From positions 1-25,776 of IMG/VR virus record IMGVR_UViG_3300013126_000212: a stretch of DNA of 25,776 nt. The stretch is one strand, 5' to 3'. The translations under genes were made by a program, and so were the position numbers. Shown here in pieces: positions 2,183-15,608 of the stretch. The notes under the pieces were generated by a model. That model was not told where the DNA came from and did not search any database. It was given only the letters and a program-made list of their open reading frames with translations. The stretch is from a virus. Numbering within the stretch: the stretch's first letter is position 1; each line of letters opens with the position of its first letter.

Positions 2183-3187
2183 TTAGCCTTTGGGAACACA
2201 GAGGTTGGCTGTGCCGTTGAATGTTGCTCTAGCCGCGCTTGTATTCTGAATAAACACATACGTTTTCCCGCCTGTGACAACTTCATCCAAGTTGAATGGA
2301 TAAGCCACACCAAGCCAAACGTCGCATACATCAGAGAAACTGCCACCTAGATGCCCTTTATATGGGTTGTTGGCATATATGTTTGTAAGTGGAGCGTAAA
2401 ACCCGCCAAGTCCATCCGGCACCTTAAACACTGGGGACTGTGAATCATAGTAATAGGATCCTTTAATCGGCGTTGCCGTTGTGAGTCCTCCACACCCAAT
2501 CCACGCTGACTTCAAAACACAGTCATTGCTCCCCACAATGCTCCCACCATCAGGGTTTTTAATCCTACACACAGCCAGTGGCCCACCGCTGTAGCTGAGG
2601 GCACCAAACATTGAAGCACCAAACACTACCGCAGATATGGGATACCCAGCGGCCACAGTATCCCAAGGCGATAGGCGAGATCGCTGCATACACCCAAGCC
2701 ATGCTTTGTTAGTATCATCACCGTACCCGGTTGCTGTGTTTCCTTGAAACAGAATGCAGCGCCCTTTGTTGGCGTAGATGATTGTTGACCCGCCAGCAGA
2801 TGTGTTAATACGCTGATAAAACCCAGTGTTAGATGACAGATTTGTGGAAACATACGCCACATTCGTCCCGGTGTGCGTGGTTTCGTTCCAAGTCTCGTAT
2901 AGCTTCACGCCAAACTTGCTAGCAACAGTGTCGAAATCAAGCAGCGCATATTCATAGTTTGTAGGATCGTCAAACCGCGCACCTTTCAGCACTACTTGAT
3001 TGGTACCCGCAGATGCGTCATGCAAAATCCACTCGGCGTTGGTGTAGGTGTTGTAAATGTAGGTATTGGTCTTATCGCAGCTTGCAGATAGGGTGTTCTT
3101 GTCTGTGGTGCCTGTCAGGATTGCAACAATATCTGCCATGATATTGGCAACTGTCGAGCCAGCAATATAGTTATATCGTGCAAACAT
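2183..3187 (-). CDS. Putative phage virion/tail protein (334 aa)
   Basis: The ATG at 3187 is preceded by AGGAG at a good distance. The N-terminus (FARYNYIAGSTVANIMADIV, then AILTGTTDKNTLSASCDK) resembles a phage structural family in which a 'random start plus TGxTDxNxLSAxCDK' segment precedes a beta-rich body. The body has many Tyr, Asn, Gly and Cys residues and no membrane span. GC content is lower than in the head genes (about 48% over 2341-2520 by hand count). It belongs to the four-gene module downstream of lysis. A structural or receptor-interaction role is inferred; no enzymatic motif is visible. Confidence 0.8.
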   Translation of the reverse strand: MFARYNYIAGSTVANIMADIVAILTGTTDKNTLSASCDKTNTYIYNTYTNAEWILHDASAGTNQVVLKGARFDDPTNYEYALLDFDTVASKFGVKLYETWNETTHTGTNVAYVSTNLSSNTGFYQRINTSAGGSTIIYANKGRCILFQGNTATGYGDDTNKAWLGCMQRSRLSPWDTVAAGYPISAVVFGASMFGALSYSGGPLAVCRIKNPDGGSIVGSNDCVLKSAWIGCGGLTTATPIKGSYYYDSQSPVFKVPDGLGGFYAPLTNIYANNPYKGHLGGSFSDVCDVWLGVAYPFNLDEVVTGGKTYVFIQNTSAARATFNGTANLCVPKG

Positions 3188-5281: not shown

Positions 5282-5917
5282 TTACTGCGGCCAATTCAGC
5301 GCAGGTAGATCAGCCACAACATCAGCAAACCCGGTGGGTGGCTGGCGTGTACCGGCCTGCACTTCGGCCAGCACTTGGTACAGCGCGGCCCAGGTAGCAT
5401 CGCGTGCCGTAACGCAGTATTGGCCTTCGGCTGCAAAATTGACAACGGAACTGGTGGCGTAGGTGCACGCGCTCAGGATGCCGTCGTAGCCACGGGTTTG
5501 TGCGAAAGCATCCAGACGTGCCTGCGTTGCGCCAACAATCGCGCCTTTGACCAGCTCGGCCTGCTCAAGCTGTTCCGCTGGTGTCAAGGAAACAATCTGC
5601 CACTGCTGCACCCACTGCCCTGCTTGCTGCACCGGGTCGATTTCAACGGCTCGCTCCGTCAATGGGTTATACGCTGGCTGGCTGGCCTGAACAGCGGTTG
5701 GGCATGGGTCAGTGGCTGCGGCTTGCAGCGGCGACAGGTCTTCCGTCGTCCAGCACGGGTAAGCCAAAACCGTCGTCAGATGGCCTTTGTTGGCTTGCTC
5801 AACCACCGACCAATCGCCAATAAACCCAACGGGTTCACCACGGCGCAGTAGTTCCACCGATTGCATCGCCGCTGCGTAAATGCTGGCGGTTTGTTCAGGG
5901 GTAAATTCAAGCGGCAT
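5282..5917 (-). CDS. Tail-fibre-associated protein, probable fibre assembly helper (211 aa)
   Basis: Begins MPLEFTPEQTASIYAAAMQ, with GGAGA upstream, and overlaps the end of the tail fibre gene by 11 bp. The N-terminal half has short segments with many Pro and Thr. The C-terminal half carries RLDAFAQTRGYDGILSACTY followed by a region ending LPALNWPQ. This pattern (a helix with 'GYDxIxSACTYA', then 'RDATW...', then 'LPxxxWP') is typical of small proteins encoded just after phage tail fibres and thought to help fibre folding or attachment. The assignment rests on this pattern and the adjacency; it is not a confident match to the classic Tfa family. Confidence 0.7.
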   Translation of the reverse strand: MPLEFTPEQTASIYAAAMQSVELLRRGEPVGFIGDWSVVEQANKGHLTTVLAYPCWTTEDLSPLQAAATDPCPTAVQASQPAYNPLTERAVEIDPVQQAGQWVQQWQIVSLTPAEQLEQAELVKGAIVGATQARLDAFAQTRGYDGILSACTYATSSVVNFAAEGQYCVTARDATWAALYQVLAEVQAGTRQPPTGFADVVADLPALNWPQ

Positions 5918-7520
5918 TTTTGATCTCCGAAATTTGTTGTTGCAGGTCGGCTACTTGCGCCGACAGGTCTTGGATGGCTTTGACCAACACGGGCAACAGC
6001 TTGCCGTAACCGGCTTCGAGCTTCTCTGGGTTTTCTGCGTACACCAGACCGGGTATGGGCATACCCGTATCTACCTGTACCGCTTGCAAGTCCTGCGCAA
6101 TAAACCCCGTGTCAGCCTCACCCACCTTGCCGCCGTCGCGCATGGCCCAGGTAAAGCGTACAGGCTTGAGCGCATTGACAAACTCAAGTCCAGCGTCTAG
6201 CGGCTGCACGTTGGCTTTGTCCCGCGCATCCGACAGGCTGGTGATGGTGGTGACTTGGCACCGTAGCGTGGCAATGCTGCTGTTGCCGAGCGTGATCTCG
6301 TTGCTTGCCGTGGCTGAAGATGCGGCGGCGTTATAGCCAATAACGGTATCGTTTGATCCGGTGGTGATGGCTAAGCCAGCGTAGGTTCCGATTGCAGTGT
6401 TTCCAGCACCTGTGGTGCTGGCTTGTAGCGCGTAGTATCCTATTGCTGTGTTGTTATCGCTAGTGGTGCTGGCTTTTAGCGCGTAGTATCCCGTGGCAGT
6501 GTTGTATTTACCAGTGGTGTTGGCGGTAAGCGCGTAGCTTCCCGTGGCAGTGTTTGAATTCCCTGTGGTGTTATCTCGAAGCGCGTAGTATCCCGTGGCA
6601 GTGTTGGAATCACCTGTGGTGTTAAGACTCAGCGCACCCGCACCGATAGCTGTGCTGTAACCGCCTGTTTCGTTGTTTTTAAGTGCGCTCTCCCCTACTG
6701 CGGTGTTTTCAACACCAGTGGTGTTCCGATAAAGCGCGTAGCTTCCCGTGGCAGTGTTTGCATTCCCTGTGGTGTTCAGGAAAAGTGCGCTACTACCAAT
6801 AGCGATGTTGGAACCGCCTGTGGTGTTAAATTTTAGCGCGTTGTATCCAATAGCAACGTTGGAATTACCTGTAGTGTTAGTGTAAAGCGTGGAGTGTCCA
6901 ATAGCAATGTTGGAATCACCTGTGGTGTTAGAGTAAAGCGCGTTGTATCCCGTGGCGGTGTTGTAGTTACCAGTGCTTACCCCAATATGCCCAGCGCCAA
7001 CGCCATACGCCGTATAGAACGGTGCGGCGCTTTGTGTCACGCCCGTCAAGCTTAATACCAACGGGGTTGATTCCCAAGTTGTACCGTTAGAGGTAAGCAC
7101 ATTGCCCGATGTACCAGGTGCCACCGCTTGCAAGGCTGATGTGCCGTTGCCCAGCAGCACGTTATTGGCGGTCAGCGTAGCAGCACCCGTGCCACCATAA
7201 GCCACGCCGATGGCGCTGCCGTTCCAGGTGGAGCCGGTGGAGTGGGTCTTGTTGGTTAACGTGGCTGCATTACTGCGTTCAGCGTACACGTGCGCAGTAG
7301 TTGCTAGCTGGGTCGTGTTGGTAGCTGCCACTGCGGTGGGGGCGGTTGGAGTGCCGGTTAGAGTGGGGGACGCCAGTGGGGCTTTTTCAGCATGCAACTG
7401 TGCAATGAAGCTGGCATGAGCGCGCTGCACGTCGTCCAAAACCGATGGGCTGTCAGACCCGAGCGGGAAGTTGTTTGCCGCCGTGGTAGACAGATCTGTG
7501 ATTGCGGTGGGTACCGGCAT
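5907..7520 (-). CDS. Tail fibre with 17-residue repeats and S74 self-cleaving chaperone domain
   Basis: A 537-residue fibre. The N-terminal part (about residues 1-50) is the likely virion attachment region. Residues 50-155 hold tail-fibre-type segments such as ASPTLTGTPTAPTA and AYGGTGAATLTANNVLLGNG. Residues 184-387 are twelve tandem 17-residue repeats of the type G-x-x-N-T-A-x-G-x-x-A-L-x-x-N-T-T. The C-terminus is an intramolecular chaperone of the Peptidase_S74 family: Ser430 and Lys435 in SDARDK form the expected dyad, followed by GFIAQDLQAV and a terminal coiled coil (about 510-535). In this family the chaperone trimerises the fibre and cuts itself off just before the serine. GGAG lies 8 bases before the ATG. 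Confidence 0.9.
   Translation of the reverse strand: MPVPTAITDLSTTAANNFPLGSDSPSVLDDVQRAHASFIAQLHAEKAPLASPTLTGTPTAPTAVAATNTTQLATTAHVYAERSNAATLTNKTHSTGSTWNGSAIGVAYGGTGAATLTANNVLLGNGTSALQAVAPGTSGNVLTSNGTTWESTPLVLSLTGVTQSAAPFYTAYGVGAGHIGVSTGNYNTATGYNALYSNTTGDSNIAIGHSTLYTNTTGNSNVAIGYNALKFNTTGGSNIAIGSSALFLNTTGNANTATGSYALYRNTTGVENTAVGESALKNNETGGYSTAIGAGALSLNTTGDSNTATGYYALRDNTTGNSNTATGSYALTANTTGKYNTATGYYALKASTTSDNNTAIGYYALQASTTGAGNTAIGTYAGLAITTGSNDTVIGYNAAASSATASNEITLGNSSIATLRCQVTTITSLSDARDKANVQPLDAGLEFVNALKPVRFTWAMRDGGKVGEADTGFIAQDLQAVQVDTGMPIPGLVYAENPEKLEAGYGKLLPVLVKAIQDLSAQVADLQQQISEIKNAA
6360..6971 (-). repeat. Twelve 51-bp coding tandem repeats in the tail fibre
   Basis: Twelve consecutive 51-bp units encode 17-residue repeats (consensus GxxNTAxGxxALxxNTT). 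No unit has an indel, but bases diverge between units, so this is an old, selected array. A thirteenth, imperfect unit follows at about 6285-6359. At protein level such repeats resemble trimeric beta-helix or head repeats of fibres and adhesins (Hep_Hag-like). Because the units share runs of sequence, recombination could change fibre length in 51-bp steps without breaking the frame. Confidence 0.9.
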
Positions 7521-7564: not shown

Positions 7565-10516
7565 TCAGTCCCCTGCCGTGAGTGCTGGCACCATGCCTTG
7601 CTGTACCAGTGGCGAGAGCAGGCCACGCTGCAGCATGGTTTGCTGCATCAGGGCTTCTTGCAGCTTGAGGGCTTTCAGGGCTTTGACCGGGTCAAGCAGT
7701 GCGTCTGGCACGTCTTTGTATTTCCAGCGCTTGAGAGCTTCTTTTCCACCTTCCAGTGGGGCGCCCAGCACCCCGCCTGCGGGCAGATGTGCCAACGCTC
7801 TGAGGGCGTAGTCAGTCACTTTGTTGTCAAGCAGCCCCAGGCTGGTGAGTTTCTCTGCGGTGTTGCTCTGGCCTTTGACGCGCTCCAGGGCATCGGCTGC
7901 GGCTGCGCGTTGCAGGTCTTTGGTGACGTTGGATAGCGTGGCCTGTTCGCCCGTGTCGAGCAAGCCCTTGATAGCCTCTGATCGGCCACGTGTCCACTTG
8001 CCGACTTTGTCCGGGCTCAGCAAGCCGTTGGGCGCTGCGCTTTCCACAAGGTTGGTGATAGCGTAATTTTTCAGGGCTGATTCACCCGGGCGGCCCATCA
8101 GTCCCCACTGGGCAATGTCTTGGGCCTGCGTTGCGCCGCTGTTGAAGGCTGCGCGTGGAATTTCGCCGCCAGTGAGCTTGGGCATGCCGTCGGCCCCATC
8201 GACCCACATGCGTTTGGCAAAACCGGTTTCAAAGCGGTTTCCCTGGTCAATACGTGCCTGACGGGCCTCGCGCATGAACTGCGCCATGTCGGGCTTGAAA
8301 TATTCGCCGGGAACACCTACACTGTCACCGGAACCTGTCGCTCCCATTCGGTCACGAATAAAGGACTGACCGCGTGCGTAGTTACTCTCAGGGAGCACCT
8401 CTGGTTTAACACCGACAGGTAAACCGTTATCCCAGCCGTTGAGCAACCAATGCCCATTTGGGCCTTCGCTCAGTATGGCTTCGGCATCCCCAAGGCCTAT
8501 ATTGATCCGCCGATTGCCGGGAACTTCGCCAGAAGTGCGAAGCACTTTTCCGTGTGCCAATACATCTGGTAGCGACATGGCCTCCGCAACACCATCAACG
8601 CCATCAGCATCTCTGTTTCCAACAACATGGGAAAGACCTGACCCTTTGACAAATTTCCCCTTTTTAATGTCCCAAGTTCCCACATTCCCATACGGAAAAT
8701 CAATCTCTCCCAGCCCCTTGCGGTACATGGCTTGTGGCAAGTCCACGCCGCTTTCAAGCACCTGACCCACAGCCGACCGTCCCGCAGCCGCTTCCAGCGC
8801 ACCGTCCAGGTGGTCTTTGATCTGGCCTGCCGCAGCCTTGAGCCGCTGGTCGCCCGACAGCCCGGCCTTGTAAGCCATTTCGCCCGCACGAGATCGCAGG
8901 TTTTGCAGTGTTTCGAGGTTGACCACACCGGGTGATTGCAGAGGCTTGAGGAATTCATCGGGCATGTCATCAAACGCACCCGCGCGCGCGGCCATGCTGT
9001 CGCCGCCACCATAGGCGCTGTAAACCGGATTGCCGCGAGCCGACTCGCCCAGCTTTTCCATCAAGAGGCGCTGGTCAGGCGCATCAATGTATCCAAACTC
9101 ATGCGCACGCTCTGCCAAATAGTCCCAATTTTCACCGGCACCATTGCGCCGGGCCAGTGGACCATGCACCACGCTGGCTTTGCCCAAATCACTCTCGCGT
9201 AGCCACTTGAGTTCGCCGCCGCCTTGGTCGATGTTGACTCCGCCCCACTTTCGGATGGCCACGTCCAACGGGTCACGATCCACATCAATGCCTTTGGCTG
9301 CAGACGGACGCGAAGCCTTGCCCATGACCAGTTCTTTGAAGTTGGCGGCAATAGCCGGGTCTTCAGTGACAGTGCCCAGGGTCTTGATGTCGTTCACCAG
9401 TCTGCCGAGTTCGCCCGGCATGCCGCCCGAGCCGGGGCCAAAATACTTTCGGGCTGCGGCCTCAACGTGAGGTATGGGCAGACTGATACGCGCTTCATTG
9501 AACGGGTCGATGGCCGCATAGGCGCGCGATGTGGCGTCTTTGGCCTGGCCATAAGCCGCGCTGCCTTCACGAAACATCTGCCCGCCTGCATTGTTGGCCG
9601 CCTCCGCTGCTGTGCCAGTCACTTCACTGATGCCGTTGAGCGCCGCCAGCCGTGCCGCGTTCTGCTGCGCATCCACGCCCGTAAAGTTGTTCGGGTACAT
9701 GGCACCCATGGCCGCCTTGAGCCGCGCCAGACCGGCGTTTTGCGTGGCTTGCACGGTGGTGGGGGCACTGCCGGGCACTAGCTCGCGGTTGCCCGCCTTG
9801 ATCAGGCGTGTGAGCTCTGCCGGGTCAACGCCTGCAAAGTTGGTCAGAGTTTGGCCTGCTGTGCCCAGGCTGCCCGCCTTGATGTTGCGCAGGCCTTGCA
9901 CGCCAGCAGCCAGCACAGGGCCTGCCACTTGTCCGCCTGCGCCCATGGCCGATCCCAACTCAAGCTGGCGCGCTAATGTTTCGTCTGTACCGCGTGGATT
10001 GAAGACTGCGTTTTGCACTGCGCCCATGCCCGCAGCCCCGCCCACCGCCGCCAGCCGACTGGCTGTGGTGCCCGCTTTCCAGAGGTCGTTGATCTTTTTG
10101 GCCGCGCCGAGCTGCCCAGTGCCGGGCATCAGGGCCATAGCAAGGTTGCCGCCAATGTTGCCCGCGATACCCGCTCCGGTGGCCATCAAGGGCGCATCCA
10201 GGCGCTGCGCCTCAGCAATGTCGGCATCGGTGGGCGCGCCAATGGCATCGGCCAATTTTGGGCTGAGCCAGCGCACACCCTGACCGGCACTGCGGCCCAA
10301 GTCGGCCACTGCCTTGCCAGCGCCCGCCATGGCCTTGTCCAGCGCGCCCATGCCCTCGGTGGGGTCTGGTGCAACGGGTTTGAGCGTGGACAGCGGCGCG
10401 GGCTTGGCTTTGGGAATGGACAGGAAGTTCTTTTTGATGGCCGCTTCAATGTCAGATACCGCCATGCCATCGGGAAATTCGATGGTCTGACCGTTGACCT
10501 CTACAAGTTGCGTCAT
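7565..10516 (-). CDS. Large ejection/internal virion protein with inserted nuclease-like domain (983 aa)
   Basis: The N-terminus (MTQLVEVNGQTIEFPDGMAV followed by SDIEAAI) is the short beta-plus-helix start typical of phage ejection proteins. Residues about 55-215 are Gly/Ala-rich with membrane-like helices. Residues 225-590 are mostly helical and contain a conserved accessory segment at about 413-505. Residues 593-697 match the phage barnase-EndoU-ColicinE5/D-RelE-like nuclease group (PBECR): EIDFPYGNVG, GSGLSHVVGNRD, LPDVLAHGKV, AILSE and HWLLNGW. The C-terminal third is helical. The gene follows three other probable ejection proteins and precedes the fibre gene. Delivery into the host with the DNA is inferred; nuclease activity is inferred from the domain. 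Confidence 0.85.
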   Translation of the reverse strand: MTQLVEVNGQTIEFPDGMAVSDIEAAIKKNFLSIPKAKPAPLSTLKPVAPDPTEGMGALDKAMAGAGKAVADLGRSAGQGVRWLSPKLADAIGAPTDADIAEAQRLDAPLMATGAGIAGNIGGNLAMALMPGTGQLGAAKKINDLWKAGTTASRLAAVGGAAGMGAVQNAVFNPRGTDETLARQLELGSAMGAGGQVAGPVLAAGVQGLRNIKAGSLGTAGQTLTNFAGVDPAELTRLIKAGNRELVPGSAPTTVQATQNAGLARLKAAMGAMYPNNFTGVDAQQNAARLAALNGISEVTGTAAEAANNAGGQMFREGSAAYGQAKDATSRAYAAIDPFNEARISLPIPHVEAAARKYFGPGSGGMPGELGRLVNDIKTLGTVTEDPAIAANFKELVMGKASRPSAAKGIDVDRDPLDVAIRKWGGVNIDQGGGELKWLRESDLGKASVVHGPLARRNGAGENWDYLAERAHEFGYIDAPDQRLLMEKLGESARGNPVYSAYGGGDSMAARAGAFDDMPDEFLKPLQSPGVVNLETLQNLRSRAGEMAYKAGLSGDQRLKAAAGQIKDHLDGALEAAAGRSAVGQVLESGVDLPQAMYRKGLGEIDFPYGNVGTWDIKKGKFVKGSGLSHVVGNRDADGVDGVAEAMSLPDVLAHGKVLRTSGEVPGNRRINIGLGDAEAILSEGPNGHWLLNGWDNGLPVGVKPEVLPESNYARGQSFIRDRMGATGSGDSVGVPGEYFKPDMAQFMREARQARIDQGNRFETGFAKRMWVDGADGMPKLTGGEIPRAAFNSGATQAQDIAQWGLMGRPGESALKNYAITNLVESAAPNGLLSPDKVGKWTRGRSEAIKGLLDTGEQATLSNVTKDLQRAAAADALERVKGQSNTAEKLTSLGLLDNKVTDYALRALAHLPAGGVLGAPLEGGKEALKRWKYKDVPDALLDPVKALKALKLQEALMQQTMLQRGLLSPLVQQGMVPALTAGD
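8426..8740 (-). other. PBECR-type (barnase/EndoU/ColicinE5/RelE-like) nuclease domain within ejection protein
   Basis: These bases encode residues about 593-697 of the 983-aa protein. The order of landmarks fits the phage PBECR nuclease group described in polyvalent and MuF-type proteins: an I-D-F-x-Y-G strand, a G-x-G-L-S-H helix start with a basic N-R after it, an L-P-D-V-L...G-K-V helix and turn, then a strand with A-I-L-S and the final H-W-L-L-N-G-W. Candidate active-site residues are His630, Arg635 and Trp690. Hand-counted GC over 8401-8700 is about 51%, against about 68% in 8761-8880, which supports a separate origin for this segment. Confidence 0.72.
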
Positions 10517-11728: not shown

Positions 11729-12904
11729 TTAGCCGGGGTCACGTCCGCCAGCGCTGGTGCCGCTTGCACTCCTGCCGCCGCCGTAACCGTTGCCGCTGTA
11801 GCCACCGCCACCACTGGATCCGCCACCGCCACCACTGGATCCGCCACCGTAACCAGAATAGTCGTAAGACGGGTCAGTATCCGTCCAGCCTTGCAAGGCA
11901 TTGAGTGAAGCAATGGGATCAGCCAAGCTGTTGACGGCATCCAGCGCTTGCTGCGTGGACATGCCTTTGCTGACCAACCCAGCCACGACCGCAGCGATGG
12001 GGCCGCCAAGTAATAGCGCGTCTTGCGCTGCTTGCCATGCATTGTCGTTGATGGTGTCGGTGTAGTCGCCAACACCAATGCCGCCAGATGCCACACTGCC
12101 GTCTGGTCTGCCGCCGTCTCCACCGCCTCCACCGCCTCCACCGCCTCCACCATTACTAAGGAGGCCACCGGTTTGAGTTGTCTTTTTAATTAGCGCATCT
12201 TCTGCGGCTTTTCTTTCTGCGGCTTTTTGTGCCACGAAGCCGTTGGTAAACGGGTTTTGCGCCATCCAGTCCACTTGCCCGTAATTGCTTGACACGGGCT
12301 TTTCAAATGTATCTGCAACGCTGGCAAGCAGCCCGCCGCCACCCCCTCCACCTCCTGCGCTTGCCATTGGAACTTGGCTTTGCACGGGTGCTGCAACGCT
12401 AAACGGTTTACTTTTTCGCGCCTCAAGTTCTGGCTGTGCCGCCTGCAAAAAAGCTGCCGCCTCGTTTGCGTCTACGCTGTCGCCAAACTTTTCGCGCCAA
12501 TATTGTGCACCTGCCGCTTCAGGTGAACGATTCAAATATTGTCTGTAAAGACCTTCAACACTTTGCTGATTGTCGAAATACCCAGCCGCCCCTGGGCGGC
12601 TGTACTGCGGGCGCTGGTAGCCACCGGTCATGGCGTTGTTGGCAAACTGCATCAGTCCCGGCGCAACATTGCTGCGAAAGTTGTCCAGGTCGCTAAAGGT
12701 GTTCTGATACGCCGTGCGTTGCTGCGCATTGAACGGGTTTTGCTGATACCACTGCTGGAGATCATCATTGGTTTTGAGGTTGTCCAGCAAGTAGGGCTGT
12801 GCCGGTGCCCAGGGTTCTTTATTGGCCGTGGTGGTGCCGCCTCTGCTGCCGCTTGCGCCCAGCAGACCACCTAATAGTATTGCGCCTCCAGATAACCAAT
12901 CCAT
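11729..12904 (-). CDS. Glycine-rich virion protein with DUF4214-like segment (391 aa)
   Basis: Starts MDWLSGGAILLGGLLGASGS, a short hydrophobic N-terminal helix, with AGGAG upstream. Residues about 115-160 (VEGLYRQYLNRSPEAAGAQY, then WREKFG and an acidic/Ala helix) match the DUF4214-type pattern 'LYRxxLxRxPxxxGxxYW'. Two long glycine runs (near residues 184-191 and 252-263) and a Gly/Ser/Tyr-rich C-terminal tail (about 345-391) flank a helical piece at 280-330. Flexible glycine linkers would suit a protein that unfolds to pass through the portal. The gene sits between the repeat protein and the 399-aa protein, and a virion or ejection role is inferred from that. Confidence 0.78.
   Translation of the reverse strand: MDWLSGGAILLGGLLGASGSRGGTTTANKEPWAPAQPYLLDNLKTNDDLQQWYQQNPFNAQQRTAYQNTFSDLDNFRSNVAPGLMQFANNAMTGGYQRPQYSRPGAAGYFDNQQSVEGLYRQYLNRSPEAAGAQYWREKFGDSVDANEAAAFLQAAQPELEARKSKPFSVAAPVQSQVPMASAGGGGGGGGLLASVADTFEKPVSSNYGQVDWMAQNPFTNGFVAQKAAERKAAEDALIKKTTQTGGLLSNGGGGGGGGGGGDGGRPDGSVASGGIGVGDYTDTINDNAWQAAQDALLLGGPIAAVVAGLVSKGMSTQQALDAVNSLADPIASLNALQGWTDTDPSYDYSGYGGGSSGGGGGSSGGGGYSGNGYGGGRSASGTSAGGRDPG
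11802..11848 (-). repeat. 21-bp tandem repeat coding for a Gly/Ser tail
   Basis: Two adjacent 21-bp copies (start of unit CCACCGCCACCACTGGAT on the plus strand) and a partial third encode a repeating Gly-Gly-Ser-Ser-Gly type tail in the 391-aa protein. Near-identity of the copies suggests recent slippage. Frame is kept because the period is a multiple of three. Confidence 0.8.
12117..12151 (-). repeat. Short GCC/CCT-rich repeat coding for a polyglycine linker
   Basis: A 6-bp-like repeat (CCTCCACCG units on the plus strand) codes for a run of about twelve glycines in the 391-aa protein. A second, shorter glycine run is coded at about 12334-12357. Such tracts are prone to length changes in multiples of three bases. 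Confidence 0.75.
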
Positions 12905-12918
12905 TTTGTTTGCTCCTG

Positions 12919-15315
12919 TTACGACACGCTAGGTGTCGGGGTGGTGAATTGACGGTACAACTGGCTTCCAATTTGTGCACCGCCCAAAAAGCCCAGCGCC
13001 GGGTTGCCGGGGTTGTTTTGCGAGGATGTACCGTAGCCGTTGGCAATGCTGTTGACGTTGTCGCTGAACTGCTTGTAGTAGTTCAGCGGCGTGTTGTACA
13101 TGTTGGTGGCCGCCGTCAGGCCCAGGTTGTTGCCGTTCATGAGCGTGTTGTACACATTCAGCCCAAAGTTGGCACCGGTCATCTGGTTATTGAAATTGTT
13201 TTGAGCGATATTGGCGTCAAGATTGGCAAAGCCAAGGTCATTGGAGCGTAGACCTAGGTCGTAGCTGTTGTCGCTGTTCTTGTAGCCAAGCGCCAGATTT
13301 CCGAGACCTAGTTCGTAGTTTTGATCGGCCGTTTTATTGCCCAGATCAATGTTTTTCATGCCTAGCGCATACTGATTGGCGGTTTGCTTTTGTGCGTTGG
13401 CGAGGTTACCGAAGCCAAGATTGACATTTTGTTTCCCAAGGTCATATTGATTGGCCACCTGCTGCGCGTTGGTGTTGGCGTTTTGCTTTGCAACACCAAG
13501 ATTTCCTAACCCGAGGTCGTAGGATTGGTTCGCCTGTGTGTAACCCAGCCCGATGTTTCCTAAGCCCAGCGCATACTGATTGGCCGCCTGTTGTGCGTTG
13601 GTTTCTGCGTTCTGTTGGCTGATGCCAGCGTTGGTCATGCCAAGGTTGTAATTCAGATTCTGACCCTTGATGGTGGCGTCCACACCGGCCATGCCAACTC
13701 CGTAGTTCAGGTTTTGCCCTTGCTGCTGGGTGGCATTGTTCATGGCCGCAATGTCGTACTGGTTCGACAGGCCAGCGTAGCCAAGCCCGGTCTGGGCGTT
13801 GGTGTTGAAGTAGCCCAGTGCGTTCTGATTGGCGGCAATCTGCTGATTGATGTCTTGCCCGCGCGCGGTCACGGCATTGTTCATCCCAGCGATGTTGGCC
13901 TGATTGGTCAGCCCAGCATAGCCCAGCCCAGCATTCACGTCGGTGCTGTAGCGGTTGGTCAAGTCCTGCATCTGTGCAATGTTGGCCTGATTGTTTAGAC
14001 CGGCATAGCCAAGCTGGTTTTGCATCCCGGCAATATCGCGCTGGGTTTGATTGTTCAGACCTGCGATGTTGTACTGGTTCGACAGGCCAGCGTAACCAAG
14101 TTGGTTTTGCTGCTGACCAAGACCGTAATTCAGGTCTTGACCGCGCATCGTCGTATTGGCTCCGACATCGGTCGAATAACGAGATATGTCAGCATTCAGT
14201 TGCGCAATGTCGCGCTGATTTCCAATTCCAGCGTACCCCAATCCGGTGCTCAAATCCTGGCCGCGCTGGGTGGTTTGATTGTTCAGCCCTGCAACTTGCA
14301 ATTGAGTTTGATTGCCAGCGTTGGCAATGTCGCGCTGATTAGACAAACCTGCATAACCAAGGCCGGTGTTCAAATCCTGCCCACGCAGTGCCGTTTGATT
14401 CTGCATTCCAGCGATGTTTGCCGTATTCTGAAGACCGGCATAGCCAAGATTGTTCTGCATCGTGCCGAGATTCATTTGGGTCTGGTTGTTGAGCCCGGCA
14501 ATGTTGTATTGGTTGGAAAGGCCAGCGTAACCTAGCCCGGCGTTCACGTCGGTGCCGTAGCGCTGGGTGGCGGCGTTGATACCAGCCACGTCCAGCGCGG
14601 TCTGGTTGCCCATGCCTGCAATATTGGCCTGATTTTGCAAGCCAGCGTAGCCTAAGCCAAGCTGCCCGCCTGCAATGTTTGCTTGATTTTGTAGCCCAGC
14701 GTAACCTAGCTGATTTTGCTGGTTGGCGATATTGGCTTGATTCCGCAAGCCAGCATAGCCAAGATTGGTGTTCTGGTTGGCGATAGCCTGCTGTGTGTTT
14801 AACCCGGCATAGCCCAACTGATTTTGCTGGTTGGCGATATTGGCCTGATTCTGCAAGCTAGCATAGCCGAGCTGGTTTTGCTGCTGGCCCAGGTTGTAGG
14901 TAATATCTTGGCCGCGCTGAGCCGTTTGCGCGCCTACGTTGGTGCCGTAGATGTTGGCCTGCGTGTTGGCCATAGAGGCGCCATAGTTCAGGTCTTGGCC
15001 GCGCTGGGCGGTGTAGTTGGCCTGATCGGTGTTGTAGGCTTGGCCGTACATGTTGGCCGCTGTGTTGCCCAAGTTCTGCGCAAGGTTGTAGTTATCTTGC
15101 AACTGCATGGCCTGCTGCCCGCTGTTGCCAAACGAGCCAGAAGACGCTTGCTGTGTCGCCCTTTGCGGTGCCACCGCCGTCTGGTAGTTGCGCACGATGT
15201 CGCCCTGCGCAGCATTGACGTTGGCCTGCACATATGGGTTTTGCCCGGTCGCATAGCCGTTTCTGGCGCCACCGCCAAAGCCCAGGTTTGCGGTCTGATA
15301 TGGGTTAGTTGCCAT
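12919..15315 (-). CDS. 798-aa Asn/Gln-rich LGYAGL-repeat virion protein
   Basis: The start chosen is MATNPYQTANLGFGGG at 15315, which has AGGAAA upstream; a longer in-frame start at 15516 would add 67 residues that overlap the previous gene in another frame and look unreal. Residues 149-526 contain twelve LGYAG(L/I) copies separated by NQxNIAxxxNQ-type spacers of variable length and by recurring RGQDL segments. Residues 557-700 carry a second repeat type (YxLGLGNLxLG). The last 90 residues (from NFGLNVYNTL through NTPLNYYKQF to SSQNNPGNPALGFLGG) look like a conserved C-terminal domain of podophage internal virion proteins. No catalytic motif is visible. An ejection or conduit role is inferred. 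Confidence 0.8.
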   Translation of the reverse strand: MATNPYQTANLGFGGGARNGYATGQNPYVQANVNAAQGDIVRNYQTAVAPQRATQQASSGSFGNSGQQAMQLQDNYNLAQNLGNTAANMYGQAYNTDQANYTAQRGQDLNYGASMANTQANIYGTNVGAQTAQRGQDITYNLGQQQNQLGYASLQNQANIANQQNQLGYAGLNTQQAIANQNTNLGYAGLRNQANIANQQNQLGYAGLQNQANIAGGQLGLGYAGLQNQANIAGMGNQTALDVAGINAATQRYGTDVNAGLGYAGLSNQYNIAGLNNQTQMNLGTMQNNLGYAGLQNTANIAGMQNQTALRGQDLNTGLGYAGLSNQRDIANAGNQTQLQVAGLNNQTTQRGQDLSTGLGYAGIGNQRDIAQLNADISRYSTDVGANTTMRGQDLNYGLGQQQNQLGYAGLSNQYNIAGLNNQTQRDIAGMQNQLGYAGLNNQANIAQMQDLTNRYSTDVNAGLGYAGLTNQANIAGMNNAVTARGQDINQQIAANQNALGYFNTNAQTGLGYAGLSNQYDIAAMNNATQQQGQNLNYGVGMAGVDATIKGQNLNYNLGMTNAGISQQNAETNAQQAANQYALGLGNIGLGYTQANQSYDLGLGNLGVAKQNANTNAQQVANQYDLGKQNVNLGFGNLANAQKQTANQYALGMKNIDLGNKTADQNYELGLGNLALGYKNSDNSYDLGLRSNDLGFANLDANIAQNNFNNQMTGANFGLNVYNTLMNGNNLGLTAATNMYNTPLNYYKQFSDNVNSIANGYGTSSQNNPGNPALGFLGGAQIGSQLYRQFTTPTPSVS
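13738..14871 (-). repeat. LGYAGL coding repeat array
   Basis: About 1.1 kb coding for residues 149-526 of the repeat protein. Early units have an 18-residue (54-bp) period; later units are 27-40 residues long because NNQTQ, RGQDL and RYSTDV spacers are inserted. Copies differ at synonymous positions, so the protein pattern is under selection rather than a fresh DNA duplication. The array produces long antisense open frames that are not genes. Confidence 0.85.
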
Positions 15316-15317
15316 GG

Positions 15318-15608
15318 TCAGTTTCCTGTCAGATACCGGCACTGCACCCAAGTGCCAGGGGTGCCAGCAACAGTGCAGCGCCAGCCGTGGATGATGTATT
15401 TGGCGCCGGCCGTGCCAAGTTCGGCCGGTGCGCTGTTCAAAGTAAAGTCGCCCTGGGCGCTTGCCCCGGTGGTGGGTGCTTCGGTGCGAGCGGTGTAAAA
15501 GCCCGCTATCCGACACTCGCTGAGAGTGTTGACCTGTAATGCAATCTCCCGAAACCAGCGCGCCGTTTCGGCATCGACGTTCACGCGCGGGGTGACGTTT
15601 AATTTCAT
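15318..15608 (-). CDS. Small phage virion protein (96 aa)
   Basis: A 96-residue protein (MKLNVTPRVNVDAETARWFR...). It follows the hub gene stop by 3 bp and ends 2 bp before the repeat-protein start. The N-terminal helix (AETARWFREIALQVNTL) is followed by a beta-rich half with TEAPTTGASAQGDF, AGAKYIIHGW and a terminal GTPGTWVQCRYLTGN. This pattern is common in small proteins beside P22-like tail hub genes, and the 'GDFxxN...KYIIxGW.C' part looks like a surface-exposed beta domain. No specific function is known to me; a head-tail or tail-tip component is the best guess. Confidence 0.75.
   Translation of the reverse strand: MKLNVTPRVNVDAETARWFREIALQVNTLSECRIAGFYTARTEAPTTGASAQGDFTLNSAPAELGTAGAKYIIHGWRCTVAGTPGTWVQCRYLTGN

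What the first reader, a model, noticed from the sequence alone, without database searches (positions are those of the whole stretch)
8290..8743. Toxin-type nuclease domain spliced into an ejection protein
Residues 593-697 of the 983-aa protein show the landmarks of the PBECR (barnase/EndoU/ColicinE5/RelE-like) nuclease group. Hand-counted GC falls to about 51% in 8401-8700 (40% in 8641-8700) against about 68% just beside it, while the frame stays intact. The protein resumes ejection-type sequence at about residue 742 (QFMREARQARIDQGNRFETG). This looks like a cargo domain inserted in a protein that travels into the host with the DNA, so the phage would deliver an RNase-like effector at the moment of infection, perhaps against host tRNA or a rival phage. 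No obvious immunity gene is adjacent.
Basis: partly seen in the sequence, partly recalled or inferred. Interest (0 to 1): 0.72.

Follow-up and report, generated by a model that had tools for sequence, protein, structure and literature searches.

The report
RNase-like domain inserted in ejection protein
A small tailed phage has a toxin-type RNA-cutting domain spliced into the middle of a protein that such phages normally inject with their DNA; related phages have the same protein without it, but one of the two usual active-site residues is changed, so whether it still cuts RNA is open.

Summary
The finding holds up. The 983-aa ORF at 7565-10516 (-) is the last internal-virion (ejection) gene before the tail fibre. 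Residues about 582-734 form a clean in-frame insertion: orthologues on nine contigs (eight distinct) align on both sides of it and all lack it. The insert holds a PBECR1 domain (Pfam PF18809): 29.8 bits alone (cut-off 27.6), 26.0 in the full protein. AlphaFold2 gives a confident model with the BECR core (helix with His630, then four strands). The best solved-structure match is a BECR-fold CdiA toxin, though with E = 0.011 and low TM. Third-position GC is 49% in the insert against 68-69% beside it. Phage-delivered PBECR RNases were proposed in 2017 (PMC5512222), so the kind is known; new here are the carrier (a gp16-type podoviral ejection protein), the set of empty sites and the His/Asn pair. 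Most likely the domain enters the host at infection and acts on RNA; substrate and activity are unknown.

The parts
7565..10516 (-). 983-aa gp16-type ejection (internal virion) protein carrying the inserted domain
   Evidence: open frame; homologues in Rhodoferax phage P26218 and ctfPj964 and in IMG/VR contigs; last gene before the S74 tail fibre
8315..8773 (-). inserted segment, residues about 582-734, absent from all recovered orthologues
   Evidence: alignment A6, BLAST segment ends, L105 pairwise; GC3 0.487 vs 0.69/0.68
8426..8782 (-). PBECR1 domain, residues about 579-697
   Evidence: Pfam PF18809, homologue alignments, AlphaFold2 models, Foldseek
8627..8629 (-). His630, predicted catalytic His in the first core helix
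   Evidence: H in 43 of 48 diverse members, K in 5; in helix of model, domain residues 55-65
8612..8614 (-). Arg635, conserved
   Evidence: R in 38 of 48, H in 10
8438..8440 (-). Asn693, at the position of the family's strand-4 Ser/Thr
   Evidence: T 38, S 7, N 3 (window, L102, L161) of 48 clusters; Ser/Thr role described in PMC5512222
8780..10516 (-). ejection-protein backbone before the insert, residues 1-579 (Ala/Gly-rich 110-210; N-terminal 5-31 like P22 gp16)
7568..8314 (-). ejection-protein backbone after the insert, residues 735-983
   Evidence: aligned with L105, L141-L144, L146-L149
10518..11717 (-). neighbouring gene (399 aa, probable internal virion protein), whose homologues anchor synteny with L105-L109

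Best explanation
A PBECR1 domain (BECR-fold, RNase-like) was inserted in frame, as a unit of about 153 residues, at a permissive point in the C-terminal half of a gp16-type podoviral ejection protein. The carrier is packed in the capsid and leaves with the DNA, so the domain enters the host envelope or cytoplasm at the start of infection, without needing new phage gene expression. There it acts on RNA (host or phage mRNA, or a guide RNA or tRNA used by host defence), using His630 with Asn693 in place of the usual Thr/Ser. Shown here: domain identity, the insertion, and the empty site in orthologues. Inferred: packaging and delivery (from synteny and homology to ejection proteins), RNA as target (from family knowledge). 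Not known: catalytic activity and substrate.
For: Profile match above cut-off for the domain alone, and 19 of 19 aligned members match the same Pfam family. tblastn reaches the H. pylori phage phiHP33 jhp1044 protein (E 0.03) and Acinetobacter phage ABMM1 (E 0.009) in the phage records; jhp1044 is the showcase PBECR polyvalent protein of PMC5512222. Models with pLDDT above 90 over the core: helix carrying His630, second helix, four strands. Foldseek PDB rank 1 is 7m5f_C (prob 0.97, E 0.011), a CdiA toxin with BECR fold (PMC8616854); RelE, HigB and ParE toxins follow weakly. BFVD: seven hits at E <= 0.001, several of them jhp1044-type 'crystallin' proteins. Empty sites in L105/L145, L141/L143, L142, L144, L146-L149. 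GC3 shift confined to the insert within this gene. Ejection identity: homologues lie downstream of a gp10-like gene in Rhodoferax phage P26218; 13 of 27 identity to the start of P22 gp16; orthologues fused to SLT transglycosylase or glucosaminidase, comparable to T7 gp16 (PMC8954989).
Against: Asn693 replaces the Ser/Thr found in 45 of 48 diverse members. PDB fold matches do not reach E 0.001 and TM-scores are low, 0.27-0.37 for the best. Beyond its N-terminus the backbone shows no significant profile match to P22 gp16. No virion proteomics or delivery data exist for this metagenomic contig. No close relative of the insert was found, so selection on it could not be measured; it is a lone deep branch in the family tree.
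Confidence: 0.6

Rival explanations
1. The domain is a catalytically dead PBECR kept for RNA binding or as a protein-protein module on the ejected complex, like the inactive PBECR of phage Mu MuF described in PMC5512222.
For: Asn693 in place of Ser/Thr; inactive PBECR copies in virion proteins are on record.
Against: His630, Arg635, Asp606, Gly610, Gly627 and Trp690 are all kept. Asn at this site appears in two further members that keep His (L102, L161), so it may be a tolerated variant.
Confidence: 0.25
2. The domain is a passive passenger: the insertion was tolerated at a permissive loop and has no role in infection.
For: The insert is found in only one phage; its composition still differs from its surroundings.
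Against: The frame is intact and nearly all family-invariant residues survive at 19-35% identity to relatives, which is not expected of an unselected passenger.
Confidence: 0.07
3. The domain acts in the cell that makes the phage, late in infection (for example on host or phage mRNA), and delivery with the DNA is incidental.
For: The gene lies among late structural genes, so the protein must be made before assembly.
Against: Fusion to an ejected carrier would be an odd route; PBECR domains recur in virion-associated carriers: MuF, portal, N4-type virion RNA polymerase (PMC5512222) and here proteins resembling DUF2213 head proteins (L027, L029, own reading).
Confidence: 0.06
4. Assembly artefact: the contig is a chimera.
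For: Low GC and a sharply limited block; raw reads were not available.
Against: Two in-frame junctions inside one 983-codon ORF with orthologous sequence on both sides; no direct repeats around the insert.
Confidence: 0.02

Closest known systems
PBECR1 domains of phage polyvalent proteins (Iyer et al. 2017, PMC5512222; e.g. H. pylori jhp1044, N4-type virion RNA polymerase fusions)
   Same: Same domain family, same fold core, same His and Arg, carried by virion-context proteins expected to be injected
   Different: Many of those carriers are proteins of 2000-3500 aa with several effector domains; here one domain sits inside a podoviral ejection protein whose orthologues lack it, and the strand-4 Ser/Thr is Asn
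gp16-type ejection proteins of short-tailed phages (P22 gp16, T7 gp16; PMC8954989)
   Same: Gene position before tail fibre, N-terminal motif shared with P22 gp16, mosaic gain of enzymatic domains
   Different: The enzymatic domains discussed there are peptidoglycan hydrolases; the terms 'nuclease' and 'toxin' do not occur in that review
Orthologous proteins in L105, L141, L142, L144, L146-L149
   Same: Same backbone on both sides of the insert, same gene order for L105
   Different: No PBECR1 domain; three carry an N-terminal SLT transglycosylase instead
CdiA-CT of Serratia marcescens BWH57 (7m5f), RelE/HigB/ParE toxins
   Same: BECR fold
   Different: No detectable sequence similarity; delivered by other routes and paired with immunity or antitoxin proteins

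Membership tests
PBECR1 (PF18809) | profile match above the gathering score | tested here: met
   29.8 bits vs 27.6 for the domain alone; 26.0, just below, in the full protein. The match covers profile positions 1-66 of 104; the rest aligns with homologues
[quoted passage not shown]
   AlphaFold2 models, core pLDDT above 90; best PDB match is a BECR toxin, but no match at E <= 0.001 and TM 0.27-0.37
PBECR1 (PF18809) | His in the first core helix | tested here: met
   His630
PBECR1 (PF18809) | Ser/Thr in strand 4 (active-site signature) | tested here: not met
   Asn693; Ser/Thr in 45 of 48 clusters, Asn in 3 including this one. Homology to the family stands; the claim of an active enzyme is lowered
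PBECR1 (PF18809) | RNase activity | not testable with these tools
   needs biochemistry
Phage polyvalent protein | effector domain(s) in a protein encoded with virion genes | tested here: met
   gene lies among structural genes
Phage polyvalent protein | two or more recognisable domains in one chain | tested here: not met
   only PBECR1 was recognised in the 983 aa; it works like a polyvalent protein but is not filed as one
gp16-type podoviral ejection protein | gene order and homology to internal virion proteins | tested here: met
gp16-type podoviral ejection protein | full-length similarity to P22 gp16 | tested here: inconclusive
   N-terminal 27 residues only convincingly; hhalign of A6 prob 41% over the N-terminal region, A8 no match
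gp16-type podoviral ejection protein | packaged in the virion and ejected into the host | not testable with these tools
   needs virion proteomics or a delivery assay

The most novel reading that the evidence does not exclude
The DNA-ejection machine of a small podovirus serves as a delivery system with a payload site inside the gp16-type protein: a single in-frame insertion turned a structural ejection protein into an injected RNase that works with a His/Asn instead of a His/Thr active site.
Probability: 0.35. Interest if true: 0.65.

Novelty: new variant of a known kind. Interest (0 to 1): 0.47.

Why it matters
It is a clean natural insertion: the same ejection protein with and without the payload in related phages, showing a point in the chain where a folded 150-residue domain is tolerated. 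That makes the proposal that phages inject RNases with their DNA (inferred in 2017 from very large multidomain proteins) testable in a much simpler protein, and marks a place to look for other payloads in podoviral ejection genes.

Tried and rejected
C-terminal residues 743-983 alone found nothing in phage records. Residues 394-520 were first suspected as a second insert, but are present in L105 and the other close orthologues, so they belong to this branch of the backbone. Direct repeats around the insert: none. Another PBECR1 carrier with the same ejection backbone: none among all loci fetched. Sequence search of the PDB with the domain profile: no match. A hydropathy scan (19-residue windows) found no clear membrane helix in the window protein, so topology was not inferred from it. 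Papers on nuclease domains in podoviral ejection proteins: none seen in the titles and abstracts returned; this is weak evidence of absence.

Full report
What was claimed and what is there. The finding describes a nuclease-type domain inserted in an ejection protein. The ORF 7565-10516 (-) encodes 983 aa without interruption. Pfam finds one family, PBECR1, at residues 596-665, E 1.4e-5, 26.0 bits against a cut-off of 27.6. Scored alone, the domain reaches 29.8 bits, and all 18 homologues aligned with it match the same family. The base composition figures inside the block are right; the comparison value of 68% is too high. Third-position GC is the sharper measure: 0.487 in residues 580-733, 0.691 before and 0.680 after.

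The insertion. Homologues of the N-terminal part in Rhodoferax phage P26218 (613 aa) and ctfPj964 (635 aa) are far shorter, as are the full-length IMG/VR homologues found with them, 542-729 aa. The decisive set came from synteny and from a two-sequence profile. L105 has the homologue of the neighbouring 10518-11717 gene directly followed by an 825-aa orthologue that aligns to window residues 11-580 and 737-969. A further search gave L141-L149; L143 is nearly the same as L141, and L145 is the same contig as L105. Where BLAST aligns both flanks, the match runs from window residue 571-582 to 728-737 while the orthologue continues with at most about 9 residues between; for L105 and L147 the first segment runs on by chance and the two overlap in the orthologue. 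In alignment A6 one block of 150-odd residues is present in the window and absent from all eight others. Since the shorter form is found in many diverged relatives, insertion in the window lineage is the simplest reading. No direct repeats were found around it.

The domain. A2 (window, Acinetobacter phage ABMM1, H. pylori phage phiHP33) found 80 loci in viral contigs and A3 found 31 in bacterial genomes. Shared landmarks are G-x-x-A, LGxIDFxYG, G-x-x-H, R, and W-L-L-x-G. AlphaFold2 with 19 and then 43 sequences gave pLDDT above 90 over most of the core, pTM 0.68 and 0.80: a long first helix, strands, the helix with His630, a second helix, and four strands. Iyer et al. [quoted passage not shown] Foldseek puts a CdiA toxin (7m5f) first in the PDB, prob 0.97 with E 0.011 and low TM; that toxin is stated to have the BECR fold (PMC8616854). 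RelE, HigB and ParE toxins follow at weaker scores. Among predicted viral structures seven hits reach E <= 0.001, the best 3.7e-7, several named like the jhp1044 protein.

The active site. Over 49 clusters at under 70% identity (48 with letters at these columns), position 630 is H in 43 and K in 5; 635 is R in 38 and H in 10; 693 is T in 38, S in 7 and N in 3: the window, L102 and L161. The window and L102 lie in separate parts of the tree (L161 was not placed on it), so the change to Asn has probably arisen more than once. It may be a tolerated variant or repeated loss of catalysis; sequence cannot tell. This is the main reservation about calling the domain an active RNase.

The carrier. The gene is the last before the S74-type tail fibre, in the place where internal virion protein genes lie in related podoviruses (PMC10386132). 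Its first residues match the start of P22 gp16, 13 of 27 identical, although the rest does not. Three orthologues carry an N-terminal SLT transglycosylase and one more distant homologue a glucosaminidase, comparable to the hydrolase domain of T7 gp16 (PMC8954989). That review places the C-terminal part of T7 gp16 in the host cytoplasm; the insert lies in the C-terminal half here, but transferring that topology is inference.

How it most likely works. The phage makes the protein late, packs it in the head, and releases it with the DNA at the next infection; the inserted domain then meets host RNA before any phage gene is expressed. The target may be mRNA or a defence RNA such as crRNA, both suggested for PBECR domains in PMC5512222; nothing in this sequence selects between them. 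No immunity gene is adjacent.

Known or new. The domain family and the idea of injecting it are known. None of the other PBECR1 carriers fetched here shares this backbone. The gp16-type carrier, the set of empty sites and the His/Asn pair make it a new variant of a known kind.

Noticed in passing
window 11729-12904 (-): Neighbouring 391-aa protein: homologues in L105/L107 are 234-254 aa and match only its first ~110 residues; residues ~90-290 have GC3 of only 0.42-0.50 and a weak DUF4214 match (111-143), followed by Gly-rich runs. Possibly a second insertion or expansion in the same gene cluster.
   Followed up: partly
window 12919-15516 (-): 865-aa protein built of repeats such as NQLGYAGLQNQANIA; related proteins in L105-L108 are 311-450 aa, so the repeat region is expanded here.
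   Followed up: no
window 5907-7520 (-): Tail-fibre-like protein with a C-terminal Peptidase_S74 chaperone domain and many TTGNSNTATGYYAL-type repeats; GC falls to about 50%.
   Followed up: no
window 2183-3187 (-): 334-aa ORF with the most extended low-GC3 stretch of the window and no Pfam match.
   Followed up: no
L029 and L027: PBECR1 domains inside or before proteins that look like DUF2213-type head proteins (own reading of the sequence), i.e. a further virion carrier; L120 is the same kind of protein in a bacterial genome.
   Followed up: partly
L150 and L151: Their proteins share only the first 40 residues with the window protein, at 75-80% identity, and nothing else detectable: an N-terminal module exchanged between otherwise different proteins, also resembling the start of P22 gp16.
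   Followed up: no
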